IMG/VR virus record: IMGVR_UViG_3300008267_000256
Coordinates: 1 to 43,058 of that record
Length of the DNA stretch: 43,058 nt
Reading direction: 5' to 3' (one strand)
DNA from: a virus
Part shown: positions 19,417-43,058 of the stretch, piece by piece
How the letters are laid out: each line of letters opens with the position of its first letter
Numbering within the stretch: position 1 is the stretch's first letter
Program-made: the position numbers and the translations under genes
The notes under the pieces: generated by a model
Told to the model about the DNA's origin: nothing
Seen by the model: the letters and a program-made list of their open reading frames with translations, nothing else
Database searches by the model: none

Positions 19417-20709
19417 ATGTATATTGATAGTTACAAAGAGTTAGAGCAATATAAGTTGTCTGTTAAGGATAACGCTGTTTTTATTATACCTCTTTTACAA
19501 GATACGAGACTCCATTATACCAAAAATGACATAGTTGCATTGTATGCTTATTGTGACTCACAAGAATATGTTTTTCCGTATAAGCATCCTGAATCTGTAT
19601 ACCACGATTATAAATTACAAGATGTACTATGTGGTGGTGCAGTATATATGCTGGATAGTATGCTTTTAAAGTATTTACATATTAAGACACAAGTTAATGA
19701 TTTAGAAACAGTTCATTATCTTAACACAACATCGGAGCTGGAGTATGAAGATCCAATAACTCAGTTTCACTATAGAAGATTGTTTAATAACTTTACTAAG
19801 CTAGGCTATCTACAATCATTAAGCTGCTTTGTAGACTATGCAAGAGATGTAGTAAACAATGCTTGTACATCAGATAATGCAGGAGGCTGGTTTTACAGCA
19901 ATGTTTTATTTGATGTGTTCTATAAAATAGAGTCAAGTGGATTGCAAGTTGACAAAGAGTATTTTACGTCCCAGTACGGTATAACATCTAACCTAGTAGA
20001 TAATAAAATTTACACCAAATATAACTTCTTTACCTCGACAGGAAGACCTAGTAATAGGTTTGGAGGTATAAACTTTGCAGCATTAAACAAGAATGACGAT
20101 ACACGCAAATGTTTCATATCACGGTATCAAGATGGTAAATTGGTTGAGATGGACTTCAAGGCATATCATCCACACATTATTGCTTGGTTGTGTGATTATG
20201 ATTTTGGATCAGAAGATGTATATGAGCACTTAGCAAAATACTATAATGAGACGGATACACCAACAGAGCAGCAAATAAAGGACGCTAAGGAAGCGACATT
20301 TAATCAGCTTTATGGAGGCATAAATAAAAAATATCTACACATCGACTTCTTTAAAAGAGCAAAAGAATTTGCAACAAAACTATATAATGACTACCATAAC
20401 GATGGTTATGTTGTATCAATTGTATCAGGTAGAAAGCTCTTTGCTGAAGATATGAATGCTGCAAAGTTGTTCAACTACTATATTCAGATGTTAGAGACAG
20501 AGCTTAATGGTGTCTTTCTACAAAAGCTATTTAAAGAGCTAGATTTTGAAAAATGTGTGCCTGTATTATACACTTATGATGCTATTTTATTTGATAGTCA
20601 AGCATCCTACATAACTGAATTACTACAAAAAATAAATTGTAATTTATTGCATGGATTTCCTATTACAGCAAAAGTTGGAGATAATTATAAGGAGATGAGC
20701 AGTATATGA
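19417..20709 (+). CDS. Divergent family A DNA polymerase (compact)
   Basis: 430 residues. The C-terminal ~230 residues follow the PolA palm/fingers order: TSTGRPSNRFGGINFAALNK (the GR--S--N-QN region), motif A LVEMDFKAYHPHIIAWL, a fingers motif KEATFNQLYGG, and motif C VLYTYDAILFD. Motif C has YDA instead of the usual HDE: the catalytic Asp is kept, the following Glu is replaced by Ala. The N-terminal 180 residues may be a worn-down exonuclease domain without visible catalytic acids. It starts the replication block, 5 nt after a promoter-like box, and overlaps the next gene by 4 nt. Probably the phage replicative or accessory polymerase; a second PolA gene lies at 39.3 kb. Confidence 0.75.
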   Translation: MYIDSYKELEQYKLSVKDNAVFIIPLLQDTRLHYTKNDIVALYAYCDSQEYVFPYKHPESVYHDYKLQDVLCGGAVYMLDSMLLKYLHIKTQVNDLETVHYLNTTSELEYEDPITQFHYRRLFNNFTKLGYLQSLSCFVDYARDVVNNACTSDNAGGWFYSNVLFDVFYKIESSGLQVDKEYFTSQYGITSNLVDNKIYTKYNFFTSTGRPSNRFGGINFAALNKNDDTRKCFISRYQDGKLVEMDFKAYHPHIIAWLCDYDFGSEDVYEHLAKYYNETDTPTEQQIKDAKEATFNQLYGGINKKYLHIDFFKRAKEFATKLYNDYHNDGYVVSIVSGRKLFAEDMNAAKLFNYYIQMLETELNGVFLQKLFKELDFEKCVPVLYTYDAILFDSQASYITELLQKINCNLLHGFPITAKVGDNYKEMSSI

Positions 20710-30774: not shown

Positions 30775-31215
30775 ATGAATAAATTACAATTTCGCAAACT
30801 AATCCGTGAAGAGATTGGAAAAGTAATGAAAGAAGTAGGCGGTGCATCAAATACTAACGCTACATACAAAGTTGATATCATTACTTCGGATTTTACACCT
30901 GAGAAAGTAGAAGTAATATCGGGAGATCCTATGATGATTGCAAAAGCTCTGAAAAAAAGGGCTCTTAAAGGACTTGAACCTGATGATTTTGATGCAGAGT
31001 TTATCAAAGCACACAAGCTTGATAATGACACCTACATTGTTTCAACTGGTGAGGAAACTGCTACTATTGTTGGAAAGCCATCATCTAAATTATATGGACA
31101 GTTTTGGTCATTGTTACAAAGTGGTGATATGGCTAGAGCAAAGAAGATGTGGTATCAGATGGATAAGGCATCTTTGAAAGCACAGGAGATAGATGAGACT
31201 ACGCAAATGAAATAG
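30775..31215 (+). CDS. Unknown protein with shared capsid-targeting-like N-terminus (1)
   Basis: 146 residues. The first 20 residues, MNKLQFRKLIREEIGKVMKE, are nearly identical to those of the next gene; the two also match at DNA level. They form an amphipathic helix closing on VMKE-V, a possible prohead protease site. The rest (VDIITSDFTPEKVEVISGDP, then KALKKRALKGLEPDDFD) is a small alpha/beta domain without recognised family. It stands alone with its own TATTTATA box. Confidence 0.6.
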   Translation: MNKLQFRKLIREEIGKVMKEVGGASNTNATYKVDIITSDFTPEKVEVISGDPMMIAKALKKRALKGLEPDDFDAEFIKAHKLDNDTYIVSTGEETATIVGKPSSKLYGQFWSLLQSGDMARAKKMWYQMDKASLKAQEIDETTQMK

Positions 31216-31273: not shown

Positions 31274-31834
31274 ATGAACAAACAAGAATTTAGAAAACTA
31301 ATCCGCGAAGAGATTAGAAAGGTAATGAAAGAGGCAAAGACAGGTGATCCAGACGCGTGGAAAAAGCCTTTCAAGGACGCTAGGACTGGTAAAATAATCC
31401 AAAGAGGTGTGGATTTTGATAAAAATCTCACAGGCGATAATAGTGAAATTGAGTATCTTATTGTAGGTGGTGGTAAAAGTGGGTGGGCATTAAAATCAAA
31501 GAAATCATTAAACAAATCAGAACCATTAGCTTGGTCAAATGCAAACGATGCAGCCAAACTCCCAGCAAAAGTGATACTTAGCTCAGATTACGAGGGCGAT
31601 TGGGAGGAGACAGCCCCAGACACATGGCAGGATGATTTTGAGGCATTACAAAATTATTTGGATAAAAAATATGTAGATGGTAAGGATTTTGGTGTTATGA
31701 TTGGTATGGGTGATGAACTTTTTAATGCACTATTCATAGTAAACACTACAATCTTACAAGATCAAACTGTGAAAAAGTACATCAAAAAAATAATGAGCTA
31801 CGGAGGTCTTGAAATAGAAAAAGGTAGACTCTAG
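31274..31834 (+). CDS. Unknown protein with shared capsid-targeting-like N-terminus (2)
   Basis: 186 residues. N-terminus MNKQEFRKLIREEIRKVMKE then AKTG; the VMKE-A site is close to the FIAE-A cleavage site of T4 internal proteins. The C-terminal part (residues 25-186) is unrelated to that of the preceding gene: ARTGKIIQRGVDFDKNLTGD, IEYLIVGGGKSGWALKSKK and acidic EGDWEETAPDTWQDDFE. Shared N-termini on unrelated bodies are what is expected for a transferable sorting signal. No enzymatic motif recognised. Confidence 0.6.
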   Translation: MNKQEFRKLIREEIRKVMKEAKTGDPDAWKKPFKDARTGKIIQRGVDFDKNLTGDNSEIEYLIVGGGKSGWALKSKKSLNKSEPLAWSNANDAAKLPAKVILSSDYEGDWEETAPDTWQDDFEALQNYLDKKYVDGKDFGVMIGMGDELFNALFIVNTTILQDQTVKKYIKKIMSYGGLEIEKGRL

Positions 31835-32857: not shown

Positions 32858-33532
32858 ATGAAAAACTATCGTAAAGTGTGGGAAAAGGCTAATGGACCAA
32901 TTCCAATTGATGAATTAGGACGTAGATATGAGATACATCATTTAGATGGGAACAGAAACAACAACACACTGTCAAACCTAGTTTGTATATCAATACAAGA
33001 GCATTACCAACTACATCTAGGTAAAGGTGACTACGCAGCCGCATATAGAATAGCTCAAAGAATGGGAATGAGCTCACAGGTTAAATCAGAACTAGCATCT
33101 GCTGCTAACAAGCGTAGACTTGAGGAAAGTACGCACCCTTTTTTAGATCCAGTAGTCCGTAAGAAGGCAGCTGCTAAAGTAGCTAAAAGAATTAAACAAG
33201 GTATCCAAGGATTACAAGACCCAGTTATAAATCACAAAGCAGTTCAAGCAAAAAAACAAAAATACACCTCAGCTGATCTAGCGGAGTTTGCAAAAAAAGG
33301 GTGGGATAAATGGAAAGAAAAGGGCTTAGAATCAACACAACGAACGTCACAAGGATCTATTGCAGGAGCTAAAAAGACTAAAGGCACTAAGTGGTATCAT
33401 AAGCCTACAGGAGAACAACTACGAACCACCTCAGATGATCCAAGATTAACTGATGAGTGGATTAAAGGTAGATTTAATGGAAAAGAGTTGTCTACTCGAG
33501 CAAATTTAAGTAAGTTAAATAAAAACAATTAA
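32858..33532 (+). CDS. HNH homing endonuclease 1
   Basis: 224 residues. The HNH core is near the N-terminus: YEIHHLDGNRNNNTLSNLVC then ISIQEHYQLH (paired His, Asn-rich loop, terminal His). The rest is basic, with Lys-rich helices (RKKAAAKVAKRIKQGIQGLQ) and a closing WYHKPTGEQLRTTSDDPRLT DNA-recognition-like module. It is a free-standing mobile gene sitting 2 nt before the broken queD gene, with its own TATTTATA box. Confidence 0.85.
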   Translation: MKNYRKVWEKANGPIPIDELGRRYEIHHLDGNRNNNTLSNLVCISIQEHYQLHLGKGDYAAAYRIAQRMGMSSQVKSELASAANKRRLEESTHPFLDPVVRKKAAAKVAKRIKQGIQGLQDPVINHKAVQAKKQKYTSADLAEFAKKGWDKWKEKGLESTQRTSQGSIAGAKKTKGTKWYHKPTGEQLRTTSDDPRLTDEWIKGRFNGKELSTRANLSKLNKNN

Positions 33533-33534
33533 AT

Positions 33535-34002
33535 ATGAAATTTCAATCAACAAAATTATTTGATGGGTATTCTACAGTCTTCCGCCAGTGGAGAGCTGAG
33601 GATACCCATTGTTAGCAAATTTCTACACGGCTATGCCGTATCTTTTAGAGTGTGGTTTGAAGGTGATTTGGATCACCGTAACTGGGTATGGGATTTTGGT
33701 GGCATGAAACGAGCCAAACATAATATAGATTATAGGACTCCTAATGATTATTTTTTAAATATCTATTAGATCACACTACAATTATAGCAGAAGACGATCC
33801 ATATTTAGATACATTTGTACAAATGGAATCTGATGGCGTTATACAGTTAAGGATACTACCAGCGACTGGATGTGAAAGATTTGCAGAGTTTTTGTATAAT
33901 AAAATAAATGACTTCCTCAAAGTTGAAACTAATGGTAGAGTTAAAGTAGTTAAAGTAGAAGTATATGAACACGAAAGAAATAGTGCTAGTTATATAGGAT
34001 AA
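33535..34002 (+). pseudogene. queD: QueD-like 6-carboxytetrahydropterin synthase with two compensating frameshifts
   Basis: Three frames together encode one QueD/PTPS-type protein. Frame 1 from 33535: MKFQSTKLFDGYSTVFRQWR then AEDTHC, stop TAG at 33613. Frame 2 from 33616/33617: KFLHGYAVSFRVWFEGDLDH, RNWVWDFGGMKRAKHNID, stop at 33767. Frame 1 again from 33769: DHTTIIAEDDPYLDTFVQME to a stop at 34002. The catalytic Cys (THC), His in LHGY, and the DHTT motif are all present but in different frames. Needed shifts: +1 at TGT-TAG-C, and -1 at T-TTT-TTA (33751-33757), a canonical slippery heptamer in the right frame. An 8-bp stem (33563-33570 with 33602-33609) ends just before the first slip. Recoding, sequence error or decay are all possible. 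QueD converts dihydroneopterin triphosphate to 6-carboxytetrahydropterin. Confidence 0.8.
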
Positions 34003-34005
34003 ATT

Positions 34006-34764
34006 ATGCCAACAACATTAATACAACAAAAACCTACCTTCGATAAAAAGGTAGAAGGAGACAATAAACTTATCATAGCAGAAATGTTCTCAGACACCAT
34101 TCAAGGTGAAGGTGTGAATGCAGGTGTTACATCAACATTTGTAAGATTACAAGGTTGTACACTACAATGTGTGTGGTGTGATACTCTGGACGTATGGCCA
34201 CATGGCAATGAATATAGCTTTGATGAAATATTTGCTATGTTTGAGTCTATTGACCTTATAACAAGGTTTAAGCAAGGCCAACATTTAATCTTAACAGGCG
34301 GATCACCACTAAAACAGCAACGCAGATTAGTAGCCTTTTTAGAAGCATTCTATAACAAGTACTCCTTCTTTCCATATACGGAAATTGAGAATGAAGGTGT
34401 ACTGATGCCGGATGCTGATTTAGCAGCTTTGATTAGCTGTTGGAATAATAGTCCAAAGCTCGCCAACTCTGGTATGAAAGAGAAGGCTAGATACAAGCCT
34501 GAGGTTATTAAAGACCTAGCACAAAGACCTAATTCTTGGTTTAAGTTTGTAGTTGCACAAGAATCAGATTGGCAAGAGATTGAAGACTTTTATCTCAAGC
34601 CTGGTTTGATTAATAGAAATCAGATTATTATCATGCCGGAAGGCCAAACACAAGATGAACTCTCTAAAACAAGAGAGATAGCAGCAGATGTAGCTATTAA
34701 AGAAAGTGTTAGATTTACTGATAGGATGCACGTTACTATTTGGAACAAGAAAACTGGAGTATAA
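34006..34764 (+). CDS. queE: 7-carboxy-7-deazaguanine synthase (QueE), radical SAM
   Basis: 252 residues. IAEMFSDTIQGEG is the QueE N-terminal motif; the radical SAM Cys cluster is CTLQCVWC (CX3CX2C) followed by DT; HLILTGGSPLKQQRRLVAFL is the SAM-binding GGEP-like segment, here GGSP. Substrate-binding WFKFVVAQESDW and IIIMPEGQTQDEL follow. It converts 6-carboxytetrahydropterin to 7-carboxy-7-deazaguanine with a 4Fe-4S cluster, SAM and Mg. It is 3 nt behind queD and overlaps the next gene (TAATG), so it forms part of a precursor pathway operon. Confidence 0.88.
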   Translation: MPTTLIQQKPTFDKKVEGDNKLIIAEMFSDTIQGEGVNAGVTSTFVRLQGCTLQCVWCDTLDVWPHGNEYSFDEIFAMFESIDLITRFKQGQHLILTGGSPLKQQRRLVAFLEAFYNKYSFFPYTEIENEGVLMPDADLAALISCWNNSPKLANSGMKEKARYKPEVIKDLAQRPNSWFKFVVAQESDWQEIEDFYLKPGLINRNQIIIMPEGQTQDELSKTREIAADVAIKESVRFTDRMHVTIWNKKTGV

Positions 34765-35327
34765 TGAAATCAAATTTAACAGAAAAATTATTATCTATCT
34801 GCGGAAGTGCAGATAAAATCTATGGTTATAATGATATTGAATCAATAACCCAATTAACAGAAGAACAGCGTGTTCAAGTAGAAACAGAACTAATCAAACA
34901 TTTTGAATTTGATAAAATTGTATGGATGGACTTACCTTCAGGACTAACAGAAGATGGAAAAAAAGCAATATCTGCAAAATCAATAAAAATATCAGACTCA
35001 GATAACCCAATTTACAAACATAAAGTAGGATATGTTTATACTATATCATTTACTCCAAAAATGTACGAACCAGGAGAGATGTATAAACCAGTACTGGATG
35101 GATGTGTGTTTGCACCCATAACATACAATCCAGAAACATTTGAACCAAAGCTAAGCATTACACTAACTTGGTCACCTGATTTTCCTCAAGACTTAGATGC
35201 ACCTATTAGAACATATGAAGATGACAAACAAATGATTCGTGATATGTTAGAAAAGGTATTAGGTAATCCTGAAGAATATAGACCAAAAGGACATATTGGA
35301 TGTTTAATAAGATTTGCGACAGTATAA
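34764..35327 (+). CDS. Unknown protein in nucleotide-metabolism cluster
   Basis: 187 residues from the ATG overlapping the queE stop. N-terminal helical region (KSNLTEKLLSICGSADKIYG), then a beta-rich domain (HKVGYVYTISFTPKMYEPGE, CVFAPITYNPETFEPKLSIT). Tight coupling to queE suggests a role in the same pathway or co-regulation only. No motif links it to known Que enzymes; no QueC-like ATP-PP motif is present. Confidence 0.55.
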   Translation: MKSNLTEKLLSICGSADKIYGYNDIESITQLTEEQRVQVETELIKHFEFDKIVWMDLPSGLTEDGKKAISAKSIKISDSDNPIYKHKVGYVYTISFTPKMYEPGEMYKPVLDGCVFAPITYNPETFEPKLSITLTWSPDFPQDLDAPIRTYEDDKQMIRDMLEKVLGNPEEYRPKGHIGCLIRFATV

Positions 35328-35342
35328 AACACTAAATGTATA

Positions 35343-35486
35343 ATGCACGAGCTACTACACTTGATTGGATTCTGCTCTGACACAATTGGTCACTTTGACT
35401 TGATTGACTTTGTTGTTGCAAATTACAGAAATATTTCTTTTATTAATATAAATACAATATTATTATATGTTACTAAACGCAGATAA
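35343..35486 (+). CDS. Tiny protein with HELLH motif
   Basis: 47 residues, ATG at 35343, ending 20 nt inside the dCTP deaminase gene. It starts MHELLHLIGFCSDTIGHFDL and continues IDFVVANYRN. HELLHxxGF fits a HExxH zinc-peptidase helix, and the following Cys/Asp/His could add a ligand, but the protein is far too short for a peptidase fold. It may be a remnant of, or a partner to, a metalloprotease-like protein. Coding status is uncertain. Confidence 0.4.
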   Translation: MHELLHLIGFCSDTIGHFDLIDFVVANYRNISFININTILLYVTKRR

Positions 35487-35949
35487 ACTATTACAATTCT
35501 TAGAAACTAGAGGACAGGGATCTAAAGCACAAGTTGGCTACGACTTAACACTGAAGTCAGTTAACATTATACATGGTGGAACTGTACTAGCGGATAAAAC
35601 CCTTGTAGAGGATTACACACCAGTCACATTATTTAGAAGTGAGAATGGTAAGATGCTCTTTAAACTAGAAGCAGGTGCATACTCACTAACCTTTGAACAA
35701 GGAGTTAAGATTGACACAAACCATACAGCATTTATTAGACACAGATCGAGCGTACTTCGTTGTGGTGCTATTATTACAAGTGGTGTATATGATCCAGGAT
35801 TCGAAGTGAGTGAAATGGGTGCAGTTATGATTGCAACAAAACCAATCACACTAGAGAAGGGTGCTAGAGTTGCACAGATTATTATGTTTGAGAATCACAC
35901 TGCTGATGCCTACGAAGGACAGTGGCAAGGTACAAAAGATGTAAAATGA
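35467..35949 (+). CDS. dcd: dCTP deaminase/dUTPase-family protein
   Basis: 160 residues. The trimeric dUTPase/Dcd fold motifs are visible: FIRHRSSVLRCGAIITSGVY then DPGFEVSEMGAVMIATKP (motifs with the RSS and the GV-D-GY-like segment) and GARVAQIIMFENH. It is closer to Dcd (deamination of dCTP to dUTP) than to dUTPase by the RSS-R-G pattern, but a bifunctional enzyme is possible. It would feed dUMP/dTMP synthesis. Its stop overlaps the next start (ATGA). Confidence 0.75.
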   Translation: MLLNADKLLQFLETRGQGSKAQVGYDLTLKSVNIIHGGTVLADKTLVEDYTPVTLFRSENGKMLFKLEAGAYSLTFEQGVKIDTNHTAFIRHRSSVLRCGAIITSGVYDPGFEVSEMGAVMIATKPITLEKGARVAQIIMFENHTADAYEGQWQGTKDVK

Positions 35950-36290
35950 AAAAGTATATTGAAGTAAAACTAGACATAGAAGGCCTACATTCTTGGCCTA
36001 ACTGTGATATTGAAGAAGTTGAGTACCTAAAGTACCTACACAGGCATACCTTTCAATTTTTATGTAGAGCTGAGGTGTCACATGGAGATAGAGACATAGA
36101 GTTTATTAAGTTTAAACACGAAATTAAGAACTATATTGGCCAAAAGTACTATGACGCTAAGTACAAATGTTGCAACTTTACTGGACAATCATGTGAGACT
36201 TTGGCTGAAGAGCTTGTTCATCAATTTAAACTATCACAATGCTCCGTCTCAGAAGATGGTGAGTTTTTTGGAATCGTTGTCAATGAATAA
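35946..36290 (+). CDS. Small His-rich protein, distantly QueD-like
   Basis: 114 residues from the ATG overlapping the dcd stop. It has LHSWPNC, then YLHRHTFQFLCRAEV, then DIEFIKFKHEIKNYI and SCETLAEELVHQF. The H...HxH plus a C-terminal CETLAE arrangement resembles the zinc His triad and the T-E-N-A helix of PTPS/QueD folds, so it may be a divergent member. It is unlikely to replace the broken queD, because no clear catalytic Cys-containing HKC-type motif is seen before the HxH. Coupled to dcd. Confidence 0.55.
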   Translation: MKKYIEVKLDIEGLHSWPNCDIEEVEYLKYLHRHTFQFLCRAEVSHGDRDIEFIKFKHEIKNYIGQKYYDAKYKCCNFTGQSCETLAEELVHQFKLSQCSVSEDGEFFGIVVNE

Positions 36291-36307
36291 AAAATTGCCT
36301 ATATTAT
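36276..36307 (+). promoter_or_regulatory. Bacteroidetes-type promoter for lipoprotein gene
   Basis: TTG 36276-36278, 21-nt spacer, TATATTAT 36300-36307; ATG at 36333, 25 nt downstream. Confidence 0.4.
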
Positions 36308-36332
36308 ATAAAAATAACTAACTAATCAAAAA

Positions 36333-36524
36333 ATGAAAACAGTAAAAGTAATTGCAGTACTCGCCCTTGTGGCATTTGGTTTGACTTCATGCTCAAACAA
36401 CAACTCAGAAACAACAGTAGAAACAACTGACACAACAACCGTGTCCACAGACACCACAGCTGTTGATACTACTTCGGTGATTTCTATCACTAATGATACA
36501 GATACAACTATTGTATCTCAATAA
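36333..36524 (+). CDS. Small phage lipoprotein
   Basis: 63 residues. Signal peptide MKTVKVIAVLALVAFGLTSC with lipobox LTSC (Cys20), so it should be lipidated by the host and anchored in a membrane. The mature 44 residues are low-complexity and strongly acidic/Thr-rich (CSNNNSETTVETTDTTTVST). Own promoter and own terminator, so it is independently expressed, probably early. Superinfection exclusion by a surface lipoprotein (as T5 Llp) is a fitting role; a spanin is less likely without lysis genes nearby. Confidence 0.75.
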   Translation: MKTVKVIAVLALVAFGLTSCSNNNSETTVETTDTTTVSTDTTAVDTTSVISITNDTDTTIVSQ

Positions 36525-36542
36525 TTTAAAAGTTATTGTTTG

Positions 36543-36570
36543 AAAGAGCCAACCTAACAAGTTGGCTTTT
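36543..36570 (+). terminator. Rho-independent terminator after lipoprotein gene
   Basis: AGCCAAC (36547-36553) pairs with GTTGGCT (36561-36567), flanked by AAAG and TTTT. The 3' arm holds the -33 TTG of the next promoter. Confidence 0.8.
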
Positions 36571-36592
36571 CCATTATTATTTTGTACATTTA
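36562..36592 (+). promoter_or_regulatory. Bacteroidetes-type promoter, leaderless arrangement
   Basis: TTG 36562-36564 (in the terminator stem), 20-nt spacer, TACATTTA 36585-36592, then 3 nt to the ATG at 36596. Confidence 0.55.
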
Positions 36593-36595
36593 GTT

Positions 36596-37063
36596 ATGAT
36601 TAAGACAAACAAAGTTGTCCTACTGTTCGGTAAGATCTGTAGTGGCAAAAGCACATACGCAAAAGCGCTAGCATATATAACAAAAGCAAAGCACATTACG
36701 GTATCTGACATTGTGAAAAGAATCTCAGGCCAAGCGTCTCGTAGTGAGTTGCAAACAACTGGTCACATGGATGTGTTAATTGCAAATGAACTTATAAATG
36801 AGATTAATAAATACGATAGTGTAGTTATTGATGGCATTAGGCAGTATAGCATTGTTTTAGAACTAGCTGCAGAGTATGGTCAAACAGAACTAGATTTAGT
36901 TTGGCTAGAGGTACCGGATGATGTTCGTAAGTATCGCTTCTATGATCGTGCTATTGCAAAGGACGACATCAGCTTTGAAGAGGCTGATAAGAGGGATGCA
37001 GATTTAGGTCTTTTAGTGTTGCAAGATAAGCTAAAAGATTCGTATACTATTATAAACAACTAA
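36596..37063 (+). CDS. P-loop nucleotide kinase-like protein
   Basis: 155 residues from the ATG at 36596; the frame is open further upstream through the terminator, but the promoter position fixes this start. Walker A FGKICSGKST at residues 11-20, Walker B-like YDSVVIDGIRQ, and a lid-like segment RKYRFYDRAIAKDDISFEEA then DKRDADLG. This pattern fits the dNMP/adenylate/dephospho-CoA kinase group; the substrate may be a (modified) deoxynucleoside monophosphate given the neighbouring folE, dcd and queuosine-type genes. Confidence 0.7.
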   Translation: MIKTNKVVLLFGKICSGKSTYAKALAYITKAKHITVSDIVKRISGQASRSELQTTGHMDVLIANELINEINKYDSVVIDGIRQYSIVLELAAEYGQTELDLVWLEVPDDVRKYRFYDRAIAKDDISFEEADKRDADLGLLVLQDKLKDSYTIINN

Positions 37064-37066
37064 AAT

Positions 37067-37708
37067 ATGAAATTATTACAAAAAGCTAATGGTAATCTCC
37101 CTCGTACACAGGAAGAGAAGTCTCAGATGATCGAGCAAGCTGCAATACACTATGGTAACTTCTTAAATGCACTCGGATTCGATTGGACTGCAGATCCACA
37201 CAGTGCTAATACTCCTAAGAGGGTAGCAAAAGCATGGATTAATGACTTAATTGCAGGTTCGGTTGGGGAAGAACCAGAGATTACTGCATTTCCTAATGAT
37301 GAAGGTTACACAGGTCTTATTTGTCAAACTAGAATACCAGTAATTAGTCTTTGTGCACATCACAACCTACAATTCACGGGAGTTGCTCACGTTGCCTATA
37401 TTGCAGGTAAGGAGAAGACAGATATGGTTATTGGTTTGAGTAAGTTAAATCGCATTGTAGATTTTTATTCACGTAGACCTAACATTCAAGAGTCACTTAC
37501 TAAACAGATACACGATCACGTAGATAGATTATGTATTGGTAATCGAGGAGTAGCTGTGGTTGTGGAGTCAATACACAATTGTGTAAGGTGTAGAGGTATT
37601 AAAAATGACAGTGTTATGAAGACATCACAAATGTCAGGATACTTCTGGACTAATGAAGTTGGTACACGTCAAGAGTTCTTTAACCTTATAGATCAATCTC
37701 GCTACTAA
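37067..37708 (+). CDS. folE: GTP cyclohydrolase I (FolE)
   Basis: 213 residues. Catalytic and zinc motifs: RIPVISLCAHHNLQFTGVAH (Cys and His zinc ligands), VIGLSKLNRIVDFYSRRPNI then QESLTKQI, and SIHNCVRCRGIKNDS with the second zinc Cys. It converts GTP to dihydroneopterin triphosphate, the first step of both folate and 7-deazaguanine synthesis. It sits 3 nt after the kinase and 1 nt before the dpdA-like gene, tying it to 7-deazaguanine formation together with QueD and QueE. Length is normal. Confidence 0.93.
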   Translation: MKLLQKANGNLPRTQEEKSQMIEQAAIHYGNFLNALGFDWTADPHSANTPKRVAKAWINDLIAGSVGEEPEITAFPNDEGYTGLICQTRIPVISLCAHHNLQFTGVAHVAYIAGKEKTDMVIGLSKLNRIVDFYSRRPNIQESLTKQIHDHVDRLCIGNRGVAVVVESIHNCVRCRGIKNDSVMKTSQMSGYFWTNEVGTRQEFFNLIDQSRY

Positions 37709-37709
37709 G

Positions 37710-38300
37710 ATGGACTTTTATGTTATATCACCGGTCTCTAATTTAGAGCCAATGAAAATGGGAGATAGGATATTTGTACTTGCACACTTGTGGGTACAGT
37801 TTCCTGAATATAGAGAGTTTGTCCTTAACTTAATTGATGAGGACATTGATCGATGGATCACATTAGATAATTCAGCAGCTGAAAGGGCTTTAGTTACAGA
37901 AGACGTCCTTATCCAAGTGGTTAAGGAATTAGCACCAAGTGAGGTTATCGCACCAGATGTACTCTTTGATAAGGATGCTACTATTGCAAATGCAATCAAG
38001 TTCCGTGACCGCATGGAAGAGGAGGGATTACTAGATACAACCGATATCTTCTTTTGTCCACAAGGTAAAACTAAAGAGGATTGGTTAGAGGCTTATGTAT
38101 GGGGATTAGAGCAAGATTGGATTCACACTATTGGATTTTCAAAGATTGCAGTGCCACAAGCTTGGTTACCTGATTGGAAAGATGATCAAGGTATCAAAGA
38201 AGCTCGTCACATGGCATACGACTATTTGAAAGAGCAGAATTTGTTACTCAAGCCAATCCACTGTTTAGGACAAGGACAGATAGTGTGTATCCTGTGCTAG
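37710..38300 (+). CDS. dpdA: DpdA-like 7-deazaguanine DNA transglycosylase, frame broken near C-terminus
   Basis: 196 residues to a TAG at 38298. The TGT-like core is clear: WITLDNSAAERALV, then ELAPSEVIAPDVLFDKDATI, FFCPQGKTKEDWLEAYVWGL and IGFSKIAVPQAW. After KPIHCLGQGQ the frame runs into IVCILC and stops, whereas the matching C-terminal part continues in another frame (38279-38455). In working phage enzymes of this family the LG-G and the following DS segment are separated by further residues, so a deletion plus frameshift is likely. The family swaps guanine for preQ0-type bases in phage DNA. Confidence 0.75.
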   Translation: MDFYVISPVSNLEPMKMGDRIFVLAHLWVQFPEYREFVLNLIDEDIDRWITLDNSAAERALVTEDVLIQVVKELAPSEVIAPDVLFDKDATIANAIKFRDRMEEEGLLDTTDIFFCPQGKTKEDWLEAYVWGLEQDWIHTIGFSKIAVPQAWLPDWKDDQGIKEARHMAYDYLKEQNLLLKPIHCLGQGQIVCILC

Positions 38301-38455
38301 CAGCTGCACATGGAATTGATTTCACAAGAGACTCAGAAACAAGAATACCTACACCACACAATTTCTTAGAAACCTTTAACATGCAAGATATAGATATGGA
38401 TTTAGTAAAATCAAACGTCAATATGTTAAAAAAGAGTTGTAGAAAGGAGATCTAA
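38279..38455 (+). pseudogene. dpdA: C-terminal fragment of the DpdA-like gene
   Basis: In the -1 frame relative to the upstream part, without its own start. It encodes DSVYPVLAAAHGIDFTRDSE, TRIPTPHNFLETFNMQDIDM and a basic end with stop TAA at 38453-38455. It matches the expected continuation of the transglycosylase and joins it by a -1 shift near 38276-38279. Confidence 0.7.
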
Positions 38456-38457
38456 CA

Positions 38458-38465
38458 TATTTATA
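38458..38465 (+). promoter_or_regulatory. TATTTATA box before structured leader of HNH gene 2
   Basis: TATTTATA three bases after the dpdA stop and 91 nt before the HNH ATG; transcription would begin about where the hairpin at 38469 starts. Confidence 0.5.
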
Positions 38466-38468
38466 TGT

Positions 38469-38549
38469 GTAGAGTCGAGGCTACAAACATAAGTTAAAAA
38501 TTTTAAGCCTTTGGTGAGTAAGGACCTCGACCCTGAAAACCAGAGGCTT
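38469..38549 (+). ncRNA. Candidate kissing-loop/pseudoknot leader RNA
   Basis: Hairpin 1: GTAG (38469-38472) with CTAC (38481-38484), loop AGTCGAGG. Hairpin 2: AAGCCTTTGG (38505-38514) with CCAGAGGCTT (38540-38549), 10 bp with one G-U. The loop of hairpin 2 contains CCTCGAC (38525-38531), a perfect 7-bp match to GTCGAGG (38474-38480) in loop 1. The two loops can therefore kiss. It precedes the HNH ATG by 7 nt and would cover its translation start region. Not a known riboswitch as far as I can tell. Confidence 0.5.
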
Positions 38550-38556
38550 TATTATT

Positions 38557-39219
38557 ATGGACTACAAGAGAATATACGATCAATTGATTGCAAAAGCTCG
38601 TATTGAAAATAGAGTAAAAGGACAGGAAATTTATTATGAAGCACACCACATTATCCCAGAGTGTTTGGGAGGAGAGGGTACTGTGTGGGCTTGGAGAAAT
38701 CATCCAAATATAATATTATTAACTCCAAAAGAACATTACATGGCCCACTTACTACTATGTGAAATTTATCCAAAGGAGAGAAAACTAAACTATGCGTTGT
38801 GGAGAATGGCAAATCCTGGTAATCGACCAAAGGACTACGTGATGTCTAGTAGTAGCTACTCTCGCCTAAAGAGAGTTGTTCAGCAGCAGTTACGTGAACA
38901 GGCTACAGGAGTGTTAAAGTCAGAGGAGACATTAGTCAAACTAAAAAAACCAAAGCCACCAAGAAGTCATCAGCATGTGAGTAATTTGAAGGCAGCCGCT
39001 AAGGAAAAGGGTTTCAAAGGCCCTGTGAAAGATGAAAAGTGGTTCAAAGCTGTATCAAAATCTATTCTTCAGTATACCAAAGATGGTAAGTTTATAAAGC
39101 AATGGGAGTCAATTCAGCAAGCGTCATCAGCACTTGGTATTAATAGAAGTGATATAGGAAGTGTGTGTAATGGCCGATATAAAACAGCAGGTGGATTTAT
39201 TTGGATATTTGAAAATTAA
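38557..39219 (+). CDS. HNH homing endonuclease 2 with NUMOD1-like C-terminus
   Basis: 220 residues. HNH core: YYEAHHIIPECLGGEGTVWA then NIILLTPKEHYMAHLLLCEI (His-His, Pro, Asn, terminal His). Residues 165-220, ILQYTKDGKFIKQWESIQQA then SSALGINRSDIGSVCNGRYK and TAGGFIWIF, form a NUMOD1-type DNA-binding module of homing endonucleases. It lies between the broken dpdA and the broken polymerase gene and has a long structured leader. Confidence 0.88.
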   Translation: MDYKRIYDQLIAKARIENRVKGQEIYYEAHHIIPECLGGEGTVWAWRNHPNIILLTPKEHYMAHLLLCEIYPKERKLNYALWRMANPGNRPKDYVMSSSSYSRLKRVVQQQLREQATGVLKSEETLVKLKKPKPPRSHQHVSNLKAAAKEKGFKGPVKDEKWFKAVSKSILQYTKDGKFIKQWESIQQASSALGINRSDIGSVCNGRYKTAGGFIWIFEN

Positions 39220-39231
39220 ATAGTATTATTA
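39201..39231 (+). promoter_or_regulatory. Bacteroidetes-type promoter, leaderless arrangement
   Basis: TTG 39201-39203, 20-nt spacer, TATTATTA 39224-39231 (weaker box), then 4 nt to the ATG at 39236. It supports 39236 as the original start of the polymerase gene. Confidence 0.4.
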
Positions 39232-39235
39232 AGTT

Positions 39236-39412
39236 ATGACAGATACAAAAGAATATATAATAGTACAAGATAAGGTCCAGCTAATGGACCTTTTCCGTCA
39301 TATCACAGACTCAAAGATAATTGCGTACGATATTACATGCTTAAAGGTAAAAAGCTCATTATGCATAACGGATCTTTTGATATTAGATACACCAAGTGTT
39401 ACTTTGGTATAG
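39236..39412 (+). pseudogene. N-terminal fragment of the second family A polymerase
   Basis: The ATG at 39236 opens a frame encoding MTDTKEYIIVQDKVQLMDLF then RHITDSKIIAYDIT, which is the start of a 3'-5' exonuclease domain just reaching the exo I strand (normally ...YDTET...). After about 39334 the frame carries unrelated residues and stops at 39412, while the matching continuation (LKGKKLIMHNGSFD) is in another frame. The stretch between exo I and exo II, normally tens of residues, is missing. Confidence 0.7.
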
Positions 39413-41304
39413 ACTTGCGTGAAGATCTGTATTGTGATACGATGTTACTTAGGCATACACTTAAGGAGGACGGCCCTTTTGGTTTAAAAGATATCGCAAT
39501 CGAATTACAGAACGAACTCGAATTAGATGTAGAAAGACAAGCCAACGAAGAGCAACTATTAATGAAAGAAAACATTAAGAAGAATGGTGGCTCAGTGTCA
39601 AAAGAAAACTATGAGATCTACAAAGCTGATATGGACTTGCTTGGCAAGTACGCAGCAGCAGATACTGACTTAACACTTCGTGTAGCTACATACTACCTAC
39701 CAGTATTAGAAGAGCAGAAACTTTGGGACTTCTTCTTTACTGAGGAGGTAATGCCTCTTTATAGAGAGGTTACTATATCAATGGAAGAGGGTGGTACACT
39801 TCTCAATATTGACTACATTAAACAAGTCAAGCAAGATATCACAGTTGAACTCAAGCAATTAGAAAATGATATAGTGAAAGAACTTGTATCCTATCCAGAA
39901 GTTCAGAAGTGGGCTATGGACAGAGCTTACAATAATTATAAACCTAACACAAGAGGCTCTTATATACAAAAACTATTAGAACTTACTAAACAAACTCACT
40001 TACCTTTATCAGATAAAGGTAAATACAAAGTTAACGCGAAAACGGCATACTTACTAACAAACGAGTCAGTTAAACAGTTTGTACAGACAGGTAATGAGAG
40101 TAGTTTAGATAATACGTTAAAGATGAACGTATGTCTACAATTAATGAAAGAAGATGAAGGTTCTCTCATTAATATCAGCAGTAAACAGCAGATGGCTGAT
40201 ATATGCTTCAACTATCTCGGAGTTAAACCTCTATCACAAACACGCAAAGGTACTGATCAGTTTAATGAAGACTTGGTAGAGCATTTGTCAAGAGACTACG
40301 TGTGGGCTGCTAAGTTGCATGATTATAATAAGCTAATTAAAATTAACAGTGCGTACATAGATAGATTCCTAGAAGGAAACGAGAATGGTAGATATTATTG
40401 GTACTTCAAGCAACATGGCACAACTAGTGGTCGATTTAGCTCGGACTGTCAGCAAATACCACGTGTATTAGAGCCAGGCGAGGTTAGTGACTTGGTACTC
40501 AAGTATAACAACATACTACGCAGTTTCTTAGTGGCAGAGGAGGGTCGTAAGTTTATTATATGTGACCAGAGTTCTCTAGAACCAAGAGTGTTTGCTAGCG
40601 TAAGTGGTGATCCCAATCTCATTAACGTATTTGTTAACAATGAAGACCTTTATAGTAGAGTTGCTATTCAGGCTTTCAAACTAAAAGGCATGTCGGCGAA
40701 TAAAAAGGATGAAAACTATGTTAAAAACATTAGACCTGAGTTAAGACAAAGAGCTAAGTCTATTGCACTTGCTATTCCTTATGGAGCAGGTGCTTGGCAG
40801 ATTGGACAAACATTAAACATACCAATTCAACAAGCTCAAGGATTAATAGATGGTTACCTGGAAGGTTTTCCTGAGTTAGCTCGATGGATGTCGGATACTA
40901 ACTTGAGAGCTCAAACTATTGGACAAATCAGATCAAAAACTGGTAGGATTAGACACTTAGAGAGAGTTGCGCAGATATATGGTCACTTTGAAGACAACTT
41001 GATGGACCCTCGCACCTTTGGTCAGATGAAAAGAACTATGAAATCTCCTGACCAACAGCAAAAGTTAATTAAGCTTAGGATGGAGTATAAGAATGGTCTT
41101 AACAATGCGAAGAATTTCCAAATACAATCACTAGCAGCATCTATTATGAACAGATCAGCTGAATTTGTAATCAACTCAAGCGAAAAACACGCAGATCATG
41201 CAGCTAAGATTATAAAGAAATGTATGGAGACAACTGTACAAATTGAGACTGGGCTAGTAGCTGAACCAAATATTTGTGATAATTTTGGATCTGGGCATGC
41301 ATAA
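39337..41304 (+). CDS. Family A DNA polymerase lacking exo I and palm motif C
   Basis: 655 residues from an internal ATG. Present: exo II MHNGSFDIRY, exo III YAAADTDLTLRV, TTSGRFSSDCQQIPR, motif A FIICDQSSLEPRVFASVSGD and motif B RQRAKSIALAIPYGAGAWQI. After the NFQIQSLAASIMNRSAEFVI helix the sequence jumps to SSEKHADHAAKIIKKCMETT and AEPNICDNFG, which normally follow motif C (HDE). No HDE or equivalent exists in between, so about 25-30 residues with a catalytic Asp are absent, in frame. With the N-terminal loss (see 39236) neither proofreading nor polymerisation would be expected. An HNH gene follows 60 nt downstream. Confidence 0.85.
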   Translation: MLKGKKLIMHNGSFDIRYTKCYFGIDLREDLYCDTMLLRHTLKEDGPFGLKDIAIELQNELELDVERQANEEQLLMKENIKKNGGSVSKENYEIYKADMDLLGKYAAADTDLTLRVATYYLPVLEEQKLWDFFFTEEVMPLYREVTISMEEGGTLLNIDYIKQVKQDITVELKQLENDIVKELVSYPEVQKWAMDRAYNNYKPNTRGSYIQKLLELTKQTHLPLSDKGKYKVNAKTAYLLTNESVKQFVQTGNESSLDNTLKMNVCLQLMKEDEGSLINISSKQQMADICFNYLGVKPLSQTRKGTDQFNEDLVEHLSRDYVWAAKLHDYNKLIKINSAYIDRFLEGNENGRYYWYFKQHGTTSGRFSSDCQQIPRVLEPGEVSDLVLKYNNILRSFLVAEEGRKFIICDQSSLEPRVFASVSGDPNLINVFVNNEDLYSRVAIQAFKLKGMSANKKDENYVKNIRPELRQRAKSIALAIPYGAGAWQIGQTLNIPIQQAQGLIDGYLEGFPELARWMSDTNLRAQTIGQIRSKTGRIRHLERVAQIYGHFEDNLMDPRTFGQMKRTMKSPDQQQKLIKLRMEYKNGLNNAKNFQIQSLAASIMNRSAEFVINSSEKHADHAAKIIKKCMETTVQIETGLVAEPNICDNFGSGHA

Positions 41305-41341
41305 ATGTCCCTCTAGACGGCCATTTTTAATAATACTCGAC

Positions 41342-41349
41342 TATTTATA
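41342..41349 (+). promoter_or_regulatory. TATTTATA box upstream of HNH gene 3
   Basis: TATTTATA 15 nt before the ATG at 41365. A GGAAAGG purine run 41350-41356 is one of the few Shine-Dalgarno-like sequences in the window. Confidence 0.5.
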
Positions 41350-41364
41350 GGAAAGGTAAGTAAT

Positions 41365-41982
41365 ATGAGAATCTGTAAGACCTGCAAGCAAAATAAACCA
41401 TTAGAGGATTATTATAGTGGTAAGGGTTATGTAGGAGGCAGAAATCCAAACTGCAAGGTATGTATAAAAGCATCTAAAAACAAAGATACTCAAAACGCAG
41501 CATCGAAAAGATATCGAGATCGTAGCCCAGAAAGACGATTAGAGCGAGATAGGAAGTATCGAGCTGAAAACACAAAAGTGATTAGAGCCAAGCGGAATGT
41601 ATACCTAGCCGAGCGTTATAAAACAGATCCTGTTTATAGATTGCAAACTATACTGAGACAGCAGATTGTAGACTACATTAAGTACAAAAAAAATGATAGA
41701 ACAGCACAGCTACTTGGATACACAGCTCAGGACTTTATTAACCGCTACGGTGAAGGCCTAGTAGGTCAACACATTGACCACAAGATCCCAAAAAGTTGGT
41801 TTAAGGAGGATGCGCCAATCAACATTGTGTGGCATTTAGAAAATCTACAGTGGTTGGGTGGTATAGAGAACGACTCAAAGGGTAACAGATATGCACACCA
41901 AGTAACAGAGGATTATTTGCAAATAGCTTTACCATATATACAAGAAGAATATGTAGTTAAATTAAAAACAAGATATTTATAA
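41365..41982 (+). CDS. HNH homing endonuclease 3 with zinc-ribbon N-terminus
   Basis: 205 residues. N-terminal CKTCKQNKPLEDYYSGKGY then NCKVCIKAS gives two CxxC pairs, a zinc finger common in phage HNH proteins. A basic linker (YRDRSPERRLERDRKYRAEN) precedes the HNH motif GQHIDHKIPKSWFKEDAPIN then IVWHLENLQWLGGIENDSKG, with His-Asp-His, Asn and the closing Asn/Lys. It is free-standing and lies directly behind the damaged polymerase gene. Confidence 0.88.
   Translation: MRICKTCKQNKPLEDYYSGKGYVGGRNPNCKVCIKASKNKDTQNAASKRYRDRSPERRLERDRKYRAENTKVIRAKRNVYLAERYKTDPVYRLQTILRQQIVDYIKYKKNDRTAQLLGYTAQDFINRYGEGLVGQHIDHKIPKSWFKEDAPINIVWHLENLQWLGGIENDSKGNRYAHQVTEDYLQIALPYIQEEYVVKLKTRYL
41974..41981 (+). 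promoter_or_regulatory. TATTTATA box upstream of ferritin-like gene
   Basis: TATTTATA 11 nt before the ATG at 41993; it overlaps the end of HNH gene 3. Confidence 0.5.
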
Positions 41983-41992
41983 ATAAAGTTTA

Positions 41993-42565
41993 ATGAAACC
42001 AGTTGACAATCAATTAAAAGAGATAATCAAAGGTGCTATTAGAGAAGTTCAAGCTGTTGAATCATCTAACTTAAAACAGCCAAAGACACTGGCACCAGAA
42101 GTGGTTAATTTACTACAAGAGAGGATTGGTGATGAGTATAATGCTCACTTTTTCTATAGAAACGCATCCAATTGGTGTCAAGGAATAGGTTATCTCAAAG
42201 CAGCTGCATTCTTTAATAAAGAAGCGGCTAATGAACTAGAGCATGCCATGCAAGTGCAAAAATATTTAGTAGATTGGAATGTAGATGTTAAAATTCCAAC
42301 TCCTAAAACTGAAGCATCATTTGCAACACTTATTGATATAGTAAATAAAGCATATGATATGGAGTATGCTTTGTTTGATGCTTATAACAAAACTTCCTTA
42401 GCTTTGTTTCAAGCAGATTTAGCAACATTTGACTTCCTACAACCACTACGTGTTGGACAGAATGCTTCAGTGGCAGAATATTCTGATCTACTAAATGCCG
42501 CAATGCTTGTTAATGTTAACAACGCATTTGAGTTACTTTACTACGAACAAACCTATTTTGGTTAA
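41993..42565 (+). CDS. Ferritin-like protein, possible capsid-targeting N-terminus
   Basis: 190 residues. Residues 35-190 follow the bacterial ferritin four-helix bundle: LLQERIGDEYNAHFFYRNAS (helix A with Glu ligands), FFNKEAANELEHAMQVQKYL (helix B, Glu-x2-His), AYDMEYALFDAYNKTSLALF (helix C, Glu) and TFDFLQPLRVGQNASVAEYS (helix D). In helix D the usual EQ becomes GQ, so one ferroxidase or accessory Glu is lost. The ~30-residue N-terminal extension (MKPVDNQLKEIIKGAIREVQ) is not part of ferritin and resembles the amphipathic tags of other genes here. It may store or oxidise iron, or be a repurposed bundle inside the virion. Confidence 0.78.
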   Translation: MKPVDNQLKEIIKGAIREVQAVESSNLKQPKTLAPEVVNLLQERIGDEYNAHFFYRNASNWCQGIGYLKAAAFFNKEAANELEHAMQVQKYLVDWNVDVKIPTPKTEASFATLIDIVNKAYDMEYALFDAYNKTSLALFQADLATFDFLQPLRVGQNASVAEYSDLLNAAMLVNVNNAFELLYYEQTYFG

Positions 42566-42566
42566 G

Positions 42567-42956
42567 ATGATATCCCTTAAGCATCTTTTCAAAGAAGCAA
42601 CTGAGAGTAATAGTTCAGTAACATCAAAGATAACAATTGATGATAAGGATGGTATCTCCTTTGATATTGTAGCAGATGGTAGGAAGGTTGGTGAAGTTGA
42701 TCTAGAAACATCTGGCCAACTTGATTACACAATAACTGATGCTAAAATAGATCAATCAGAAAGAGGTAAAGGATATTATTATAAAGCTCTATTTAACCTA
42801 TTAGATCAAAAGCCAAATATCAAAATACATTCTGTCTATCGCTCACCAGAAGCTAACAAAGCGTGGAATAGATTAATGGATAAAATGGGTGATAAATACT
42901 CAGTTGTCTACAAAAAAGTAGATGGTGAGTTAATGTATATTCTATCAAAGAAATAA
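42567..42956 (+). CDS. GNAT-like small protein with capsid-targeting-like N-terminus
   Basis: 129 residues from the ATG at 42567 (the frame is open upstream inside the ferritin-like gene, but this ATG follows its stop by one base). N-terminus MISLKHLFKEATES closely recalls the T4 internal-protein tag MKTYQEFIAEA, with LFKE-A as likely cleavage site. The body has DQSERGKGYYYKALFNLLDQ then IHSVYRSPEANKAWNRLMDK, i.e. the R/Q-x-x-G-x-G/Y acetyl-CoA loop and the N-x-A helix of GNAT acetyltransferases. It could be an acetyltransferase carried in the head; substrate unknown. A strong terminator follows. Confidence 0.65.
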   Translation: MISLKHLFKEATESNSSVTSKITIDDKDGISFDIVADGRKVGEVDLETSGQLDYTITDAKIDQSERGKGYYYKALFNLLDQKPNIKIHSVYRSPEANKAWNRLMDKMGDKYSVVYKKVDGELMYILSKK

Positions 42957-42997
42957 CATACGTCTTAGGACCGTATAGTTGCTTGGCAACTTTTAAG

Positions 42998-43027
42998 CCC
43001 GGATAAGCTACCATTATCCGGGTTTTT
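42998..43027 (+). terminator. Strong rho-independent terminator
   Basis: Perfect 9-bp stem CCCGGATAA (42998-43006) / TTATCCGGG (43014-43022), 7-nt loop, TTTTT. A second small hairpin GTTGC-TTG-GCAAC lies at 42978-42990. Confidence 0.92.
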
Positions 43028-43041
43028 CTATTTTATGTAGA

Positions 43042-43049
43042 TATTTATG
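43042..43049 (+). promoter_or_regulatory. TATTTATG box near window end
   Basis: TATTTATG, one mismatch from the recurrent motif, after the terminator; it probably serves a gene that starts beyond the window. Confidence 0.35.
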
Positions 43050-43058
43050 GGCACACAA

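What the first reader, a model, noticed from the sequence alone, without database searches (positions are those of the whole stretch)
39236..41304. Second family A polymerase has lost exactly one motif in each active site
Exo II, exo III, pol motifs A and B are intact, but exo I (with a frame change at ~39334) and motif C (in-frame, after EFVIN) are missing. The flanking sequences on both sides of each gap still match the family. Two separate, short deletions that each remove a catalytic centre, in a gene lying between two HNH endonucleases, are striking. Either the polymerase is dead and kept for structure, or pieces are supplied elsewhere (split gene, trans-splicing), or the assembly lost the segments.
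Basis: partly seen in the sequence, partly recalled or inferred. Interest (0 to 1): 0.7.

Follow-up and report, generated by a model that had tools for sequence, protein, structure and literature searches.

The report
Gapped phage polymerase, probably assembly error
A phage DNA polymerase gene in this metagenome contig really lacks two short catalytic stretches, but relatives have them, two neighbouring genes are broken too, and the same kind of loss was found only in contigs of one other metagenome sample, so this is most likely a faulty assembly and not biology.

Summary
The gaps are there. Against relatives the polymerase lacks about 172 nt (exo I; frame changed) at 39334/39335 and 66 nt (22 codons, in frame) at 41162. 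The second gap lies before EFVIN, which is the tail of motif C. Motif A, the lysine/YG of motif B, exo II and exo III remain. The finding is wider: dpdA lacks 46 nt (frameshift) at 38276, and queD carries +4 and +2 nt at 33612 and 33752. The lost pieces are not elsewhere in the 43-kb contig.

All 80 fetched pol homologues have the exo I carboxylates; 79 have motif C (one is cut by its contig end). At least 12 distinct contigs have an intact pol within 120 nt of a homing-endonuclease gene, one on both sides, so the endonucleases do not explain the damage.

The same clean 63-175 nt losses hit recA, helicase, queE, dpdA and another gene only in contigs of one metagenome sample (3300008267): 5 of 62 gene copies, against 0 of 486 elsewhere. 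They do not favour conserved DNA. Most likely cause: short stretches dropped in assembly. The window's own sample is unknown and no reads were available, so a real, recent deletion is not excluded.

The parts
32858..33532 (+). HNH_3 endonuclease gene upstream of queD
   Evidence: Pfam HNH_3 E 7.6e-12; phrog_12324 intron-like DNA endonuclease E 4e-33
33535..34002 (+). queD-like gene, broken: +4 nt after the THC codons (~33612, gives an in-frame TAG) and +2 nt in a T run (~33752)
   Evidence: family name from the QueD hit of the homologue in L149
37710..38440 (+). dpdA (DNA guanine transglycosylase), broken: 46 nt missing after HCLGQG (38276), C-terminal part continues in another frame
   Evidence: name from the immuto annotation, to which the window protein matches at E 4.8e-4
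38557..39219 (+). HNH homing endonuclease with NUMOD-type C-terminus
   Evidence: phrog_655 E 3e-34; PF22083 E 1.5e-7
39236..39334 (+). 5' part of the second family A polymerase (33 codons, ends in IIAYDI)
   Evidence: 82% aa identity to L003
39334..39335 (+). junction: 172 nt with exo I missing against L003, frame changed
39337..41304 (+). rest of the polymerase, 655 aa: exo II, exo III, motifs A and B present
   Evidence: Pfam DNA_pol_A E 4.6e-45, DNA_pol_A_exo1 E 6.7e-7
41162..41163 (+). junction: 66 nt (22 codons, up to HD of motif C) missing, in frame, NRSA|EFVIN
41365..41982 (+). HNH / endonuclease VII-like gene after the polymerase
   Evidence: phrog_1035 E 2.2e-17
19417..20709 (+). first, divergent family A-like polymerase, 430 aa, unbroken; also in relatives
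   Evidence: Pfam DNA_pol_A E 1.6e-4, 21.2 bits, below the curated cut-off of 34.3; aligned with relatives

Best explanation
The contig comes from a Flavobacterium-phage-immuto-like virus whose polymerase, dpdA and queD are in reality most likely intact. Short stretches (46, 66 and about 172 nt) were dropped, and a few bases added, when the contig was put together from reads, so that sequences on either side were joined cleanly. The dropped stretches happen to contain the coding sequence of exo I and motif C. Shown: the gaps, the intact relatives, the restriction of this kind of lesion to the window and contigs of one sample. Inferred: that the window was assembled in the same way, and the exact cause (for instance uncovered gaps of read-pair size closed without Ns, where strains with and without an endonuclease gene make the assembly graph branch).
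For: 80 of 80 pol homologues keep exo I, 79 of 80 motif C, the other cut by its contig end. Five indels in three genes within 8 kb; none found in the 10 other surveyed gene families of the window. The same clean losses in sample 3300008267: queE -175, one gene ('g113') -100 and dpdA -149 nt in contig 001270; g113 -63 in 000871; recA about -121 in 000054; helicase about -155 in 005971. Gene-copy count 5 of 62 in that sample's clusters against 0 of 486 in others, Fisher p 1.6e-5; contig clusters 3 of 7 against 0 of 144 (the recA case was missed by its criteria). Not at more conserved DNA (combined p 0.55 over 7 deletions). Remaining codons under purifying selection. No endonuclease gene found among the ORFs around the three lesions of 001270.
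Against: No reads were available. The sample of the window is unknown. Where one virus was assembled in two samples (8267_005425 with 8459_000118; 8267_009160 with 8453_000584) there is no such indel, so the artefact was never caught with the intact and broken copy of one virus side by side. The four lesion sites of the window lie 81, 279, 116 and 203 nt from an endonuclease gene, closer than chance would suggest. Chimeric joining, one way to make such errors, was not supported.
Confidence: 0.8

Rival explanations
1. Real damage linked to free-standing homing endonucleases. The endonucleases beside queD, dpdA and pol cut their target sites, which lie in active-site codons of neighbouring genes; faulty end repair left short deletions and a 4-nt insertion. 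The genome would then be a defective one, surviving by complementation in mixed infection.
For: All four lesion sites lie within 300 nt of an endonuclease gene (coordinates). A review states that recognition sites of such enzymes often cover active-site codons and that free-standing ones act outside introns (PMC2988022, passages read). The endonuclease genes themselves are unbroken ORFs.
Against: In at least 12 other distinct contigs an endonuclease gene lies within 120 nt of pol, in L076 on both sides, and pol is full length, but for one cut by its contig end. The like lesions of contigs 001270, 000871, 000054 and 005971 have no endonuclease of the searched families within 500 nt of the broken gene. 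A lethal loss should not be the consensus.
Confidence: 0.1
2. A real, very recent loss of function: the polymerase, dpdA and queD are pseudogenes in this virus, and the first family A-like polymerase (19417-20709) does the work.
For: A second polymerase-like gene is present and unbroken.
Against: The relatives compared come from contigs that keep both genes; 0 of 80 homologues are broken; dN/dS of the remaining codons is as low as between intact genes; five indels without other stops in the remaining polymerase frame is odd for decay.
Confidence: 0.06
3. A gene in pieces: the exo I and motif C segments are encoded elsewhere and joined by trans-splicing, or the polymerase is a complex of several chains.
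For: Split phage polymerases and reductases made by endonuclease insertion are known (PMC2988022, passages).
Against: No match above chance to the missing segments in six frames of the contig; no Rfam intron match; in the known split genes both parts together make the whole enzyme; in the same contig two unrelated genes are broken in the same manner.
Confidence: 0.02

Closest known systems
Family A DNA polymerase of Flavobacterium phage vB_FspM_immuto_2-6A (QQO91751.1) and IMG/VR relatives L003-L011
   Same: Same gene in a like neighbourhood (folE, dpdA, pol); 44% (immuto) to 76% (L003) identity over the shared part
   Different: These relatives have exo I, and motif C where the contig reaches it; the window lacks both
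Free-standing homing endonucleases next to replication genes, and split genes such as nrdA of Aeh1 and gene 43 of Aeromonas phage 25 (PMC2988022)
   Same: Endonuclease genes flank a replication gene, as in at least 12 relatives here
   Different: In the known split genes the parts together make a working enzyme; here residues are missing and the endonuclease genes lie outside the coding sequence
Group I introns with HNH endonucleases in phage DNA polymerase genes (I-HmuI, I-PfoP3I; PMC3428280, passages)
   Same: HNH endonucleases associated with phage polymerase genes and conserved sites
   Different: No intron is inserted here and nothing was found in Rfam; sequence is missing, not added

Membership tests
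Family A DNA polymerase with 3'-5' exonuclease | Palm/finger domain (Pfam DNA_pol_A) | tested here: met
   E 4.6e-45, 154.6 bits against a cut-off of 34.3
Family A DNA polymerase with 3'-5' exonuclease | Exo I carboxylates | tested here: not met
   172 nt missing; present in 80 of 80 homologues
Family A DNA polymerase with 3'-5' exonuclease | Exo II and exo III | tested here: met
   HNGSFD and YAAADTD
Family A DNA polymerase with 3'-5' exonuclease | Motif A aspartate and motif B lysine | tested here: met
   DQSSLEPRVF; RQRAKSIALAIPYG
Family A DNA polymerase with 3'-5' exonuclease | Motif C (His-Asp) | tested here: not met
   66 nt missing before EFVIN; present in 79 of 80 homologues, the other cut by its contig end
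Gene split by a homing endonuclease | Endonuclease gene inside the coding sequence, both parts complete | tested here: not met
   Endonuclease genes lie before the start and after the stop; residues are missing
Group I intron in a polymerase gene | Intron RNA between the exons | tested here: not met
   No Rfam match at the gathering score, none to an intron family at E <= 5 in 33000-43058; exons abut
Assembly artefact | Reads that contain the missing segments | not testable with these tools
   No reads held
Assembly artefact | Like lesions in unrelated genes of other contigs from a shared technical source, absent elsewhere | tested here: inconclusive
   5 of 62 against 0 of 486 gene copies; that the window shares the source is not known

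The most novel reading that the evidence does not exclude
A real genome in which free-standing homing endonucleases destroyed the active-site codons of their neighbours (queD, dpdA, pol twice) by cutting and faulty repair, leaving a selfish, defective phage that lives on intact co-infecting relatives.
Probability: 0.06. Interest if true: 0.65.

Novelty: not a real feature. Interest (0 to 1): 0.12.

Why it matters
If the losses are assembly errors, they warn that IMG/VR contigs of some samples carry clean 46-175 nt losses without Ns that look like catalytic-site knock-outs; claims of dead viral enzymes from such contigs need a check against relatives and reads. If the losses were real, they would be a rare case of endonucleases ruining the essential genes beside them.

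Tried and rejected
(1) Missing segments elsewhere in the window: nothing above chance by protein (two reference versions each of exo I, motif C and dpdA) or DNA search. The dpdA search showed only the dpdA locus itself, where a stretch in the wrong frame resembles the lost motif (EFVTQANPLFR); taken as chance.

(2) My own idea that deletions fall on conserved DNA shared by strains: not supported. Of 8 deletions given to the test 7 could be scored (the recA one gave no row); the fractions of same-length windows at least as conserved were 0.58, 0.39, 0.31, 0.64, 0.38, 0.53 and 0.20, combined p 0.55.

(3) Chimeric joins between strains: not supported. At 7 of 10 lesion sites there was enough alignment; 11% to 81% of 484 control points showed a shift of ancestry at least as large. 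The visible jump of identity in contig G013 (75% to 86% against G002) therefore does not count.

(4) Endonuclease-linked damage: set back by the intact endonuclease-flanked pol genes.

(5) The same virus in another sample: an exact 20-mer left of the exo I junction hit no contig (the window's own and very near records may be left out by the tool). A 28-mer from the window's start hit two contigs at 87-89% identity in which no pol was found.

(6) Sample identity: no paper in the held library names 3300008267; my recollection that it is a Lake Erie sample is unverified; the passages read of a Lake Erie paper (PMC5647855) do not name it. A search for papers on misassembly was read as a listing only.

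(7) Dropped or weaker rows. One search also lists in-frame gaps backed by few contigs (G003 at 12055, G012 at 6258, G001 at 15763, G002 at 1333, X178 at 15093, G013 at 4520), a 1-nt split in G010 at 15038, and a natural length difference in the middle of pol in six contigs (G003-G006, X045, X049); I did not count them as lesions. One search left out matches under 40% identity, genes under 80% covered, and pol gaps at residues 280-360. Single stops inside matches (folE L122, L146, L202; dpdA L127; exo L212, L215), C-terminal shortfalls of dpdA in L051, L087, L089 and L090, a 19-aa gap in queE of L131 and L143, 12-aa gaps near the start of recA in L163, L165, L168, L187 and L214, and the distant pol of L012 were not followed up.

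Full report
What was checked. The ORF at 39337-41304 (655 aa) is a family A polymerase (Pfam DNA_pol_A E 4.6e-45, exonuclease domain E 6.7e-7), preceded by a 33-codon piece in another frame at 39236-39334. The window is a virus record of 43,058 bases; its closest annotated phage is Flavobacterium phage immuto (160 kb).

The two gaps. Against eight relatives the first gap removes 172 nt between IIAYD-I and the LKGKK stretch and changes the frame; the second removes 66 nt in frame, joining NRSA to EFVIN. Exo II, exo III and motifs A and B are present.

More lesions. The same 8 kb hold two more broken genes: dpdA lacks 46 nt after HCLGQG and goes on in another frame, and queD has +4 nt (giving a stop right after THC) and +2 nt in a run of T. 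Of 13 gene families scored in the window, 3 are broken and 10 are not.

Relatives are intact. In 80 pol loci from IMG/VR all 80 have the exo I Asp and Glu and 79 have the His-Asp of motif C; the remaining one ends at its contig edge. A conserved short form is therefore excluded in this set. These were the best 80 of 333 by score, so badly broken copies could have ranked lower.

Is it the endonucleases? The four lesion sites lie 81, 279, 116 and 203 nt from three endonuclease genes. This looks telling, and the literature says that such enzymes often recognise active-site codons (PMC2988022, passages). But a search for relatives of six endonucleases (the window's three, named by PHROG; three from L003, L008 and L009 named by my reading of their sequence) found such genes within 120 nt of pol in 14 loci of the 80-locus set and L009, which are 12 distinct contigs after removing two near-identical pairs (L058/L060, L113/L116); L141 has one at 487 nt. 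In L076 they lie on both sides. All these pol genes align full length, except L009, cut at its contig end far from its endonuclease. Such genes at the ends of pol are thus common and harmless here.

Is it the sample? Clean losses of the same size class were found in four more contigs, all from sample 3300008267: three in contig 001270 (queE 175, g113 100, dpdA 149 nt), one each in 000871 (g113 63), 000054 (recA about 121) and 005971 (helicase about 155). In a gene-by-gene count over 15 families, 5 of 62 copies are broken in the 7 clusters that hold contigs of that sample, and 0 of 486 in 144 other clusters (p 1.6e-5, which by its criteria missed the recA case). Copies within one contig are not independent; by contig it is 3 of 7 against 0 of 144 (p 6e-5). 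Two of the 7 clusters also hold identical contigs of other samples (8459, 8453). The larger contigs of the sample were mostly clean, and where the same virus was assembled twice the copies agree.

What the errors are not. They are not at more conserved DNA, so 'one motif in each active site' reads as coincidence, and they do not sit at switches of ancestry. Of 232 loci then held, one has four single Ns and none a run of N, so joins are made without marks. A loss of up to about 175 nt would fit an uncovered stretch between read pairs; this is inference. Nearness to endonuclease genes may be explained if strains with and without them branch the assembly graph there; also inference.

Selection. 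The remaining polymerase codons have dN/dS 0.08 against L003, like pairs of intact genes (0.07 and 0.10 in the two intact pairs where it could be computed; the other intact pairs were saturated at synonymous sites). So there was no long decay; this fits an artefact or a very recent loss.

Verdict. Not shown: the window's sample, its depth, any read. I keep 0.1 for endonuclease-linked damage.

Noticed in passing
pol loci L041-L120: In 70 of 80 homologues the third residue of motif C is Gln, not Glu (HDQ); the immuto isolate also has QIHDQLIIN. Only 9 have HDE, as L003 does.
   Followed up: no
window 30775-31215 and 31274-31834; L004 873, 4041, 4655, 5005; L008 4896; L149 5767; L135 2835: Otherwise unlike small proteins share an N-terminal leader of the form MKxxEFRKLIREEV. 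It recalls, from memory only, the capsid-targeting leaders of T4 internal proteins.
   Followed up: partly
window 38557-39219 and 41365-41982; L048, L058, L068, L076, L083, L098, L100, L103, L104, L113, L120: Both ends of the family A pol gene are favoured places for HNH and GIY-YIG type endonuclease genes in this phage group.
   Followed up: partly
window 19417-20709: A second, divergent family A-like polymerase without a recognised exonuclease part, 430 aa, also present in relatives.
   Followed up: partly
L153 end and L003 start: Two contigs of sample 3300008267 (000054 and 008295) overlap by exactly 114 identical bases at their ends, so they are probably one genome of about 164 kb.
   Followed up: no
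window 33535-38440: Genes of 7-deazaguanine DNA modification (queD, queE, folE, dpdA), as folE and dpdA are annotated in immuto; in the window queD and dpdA are broken while queE and folE are not seen to be.
   Followed up: partly
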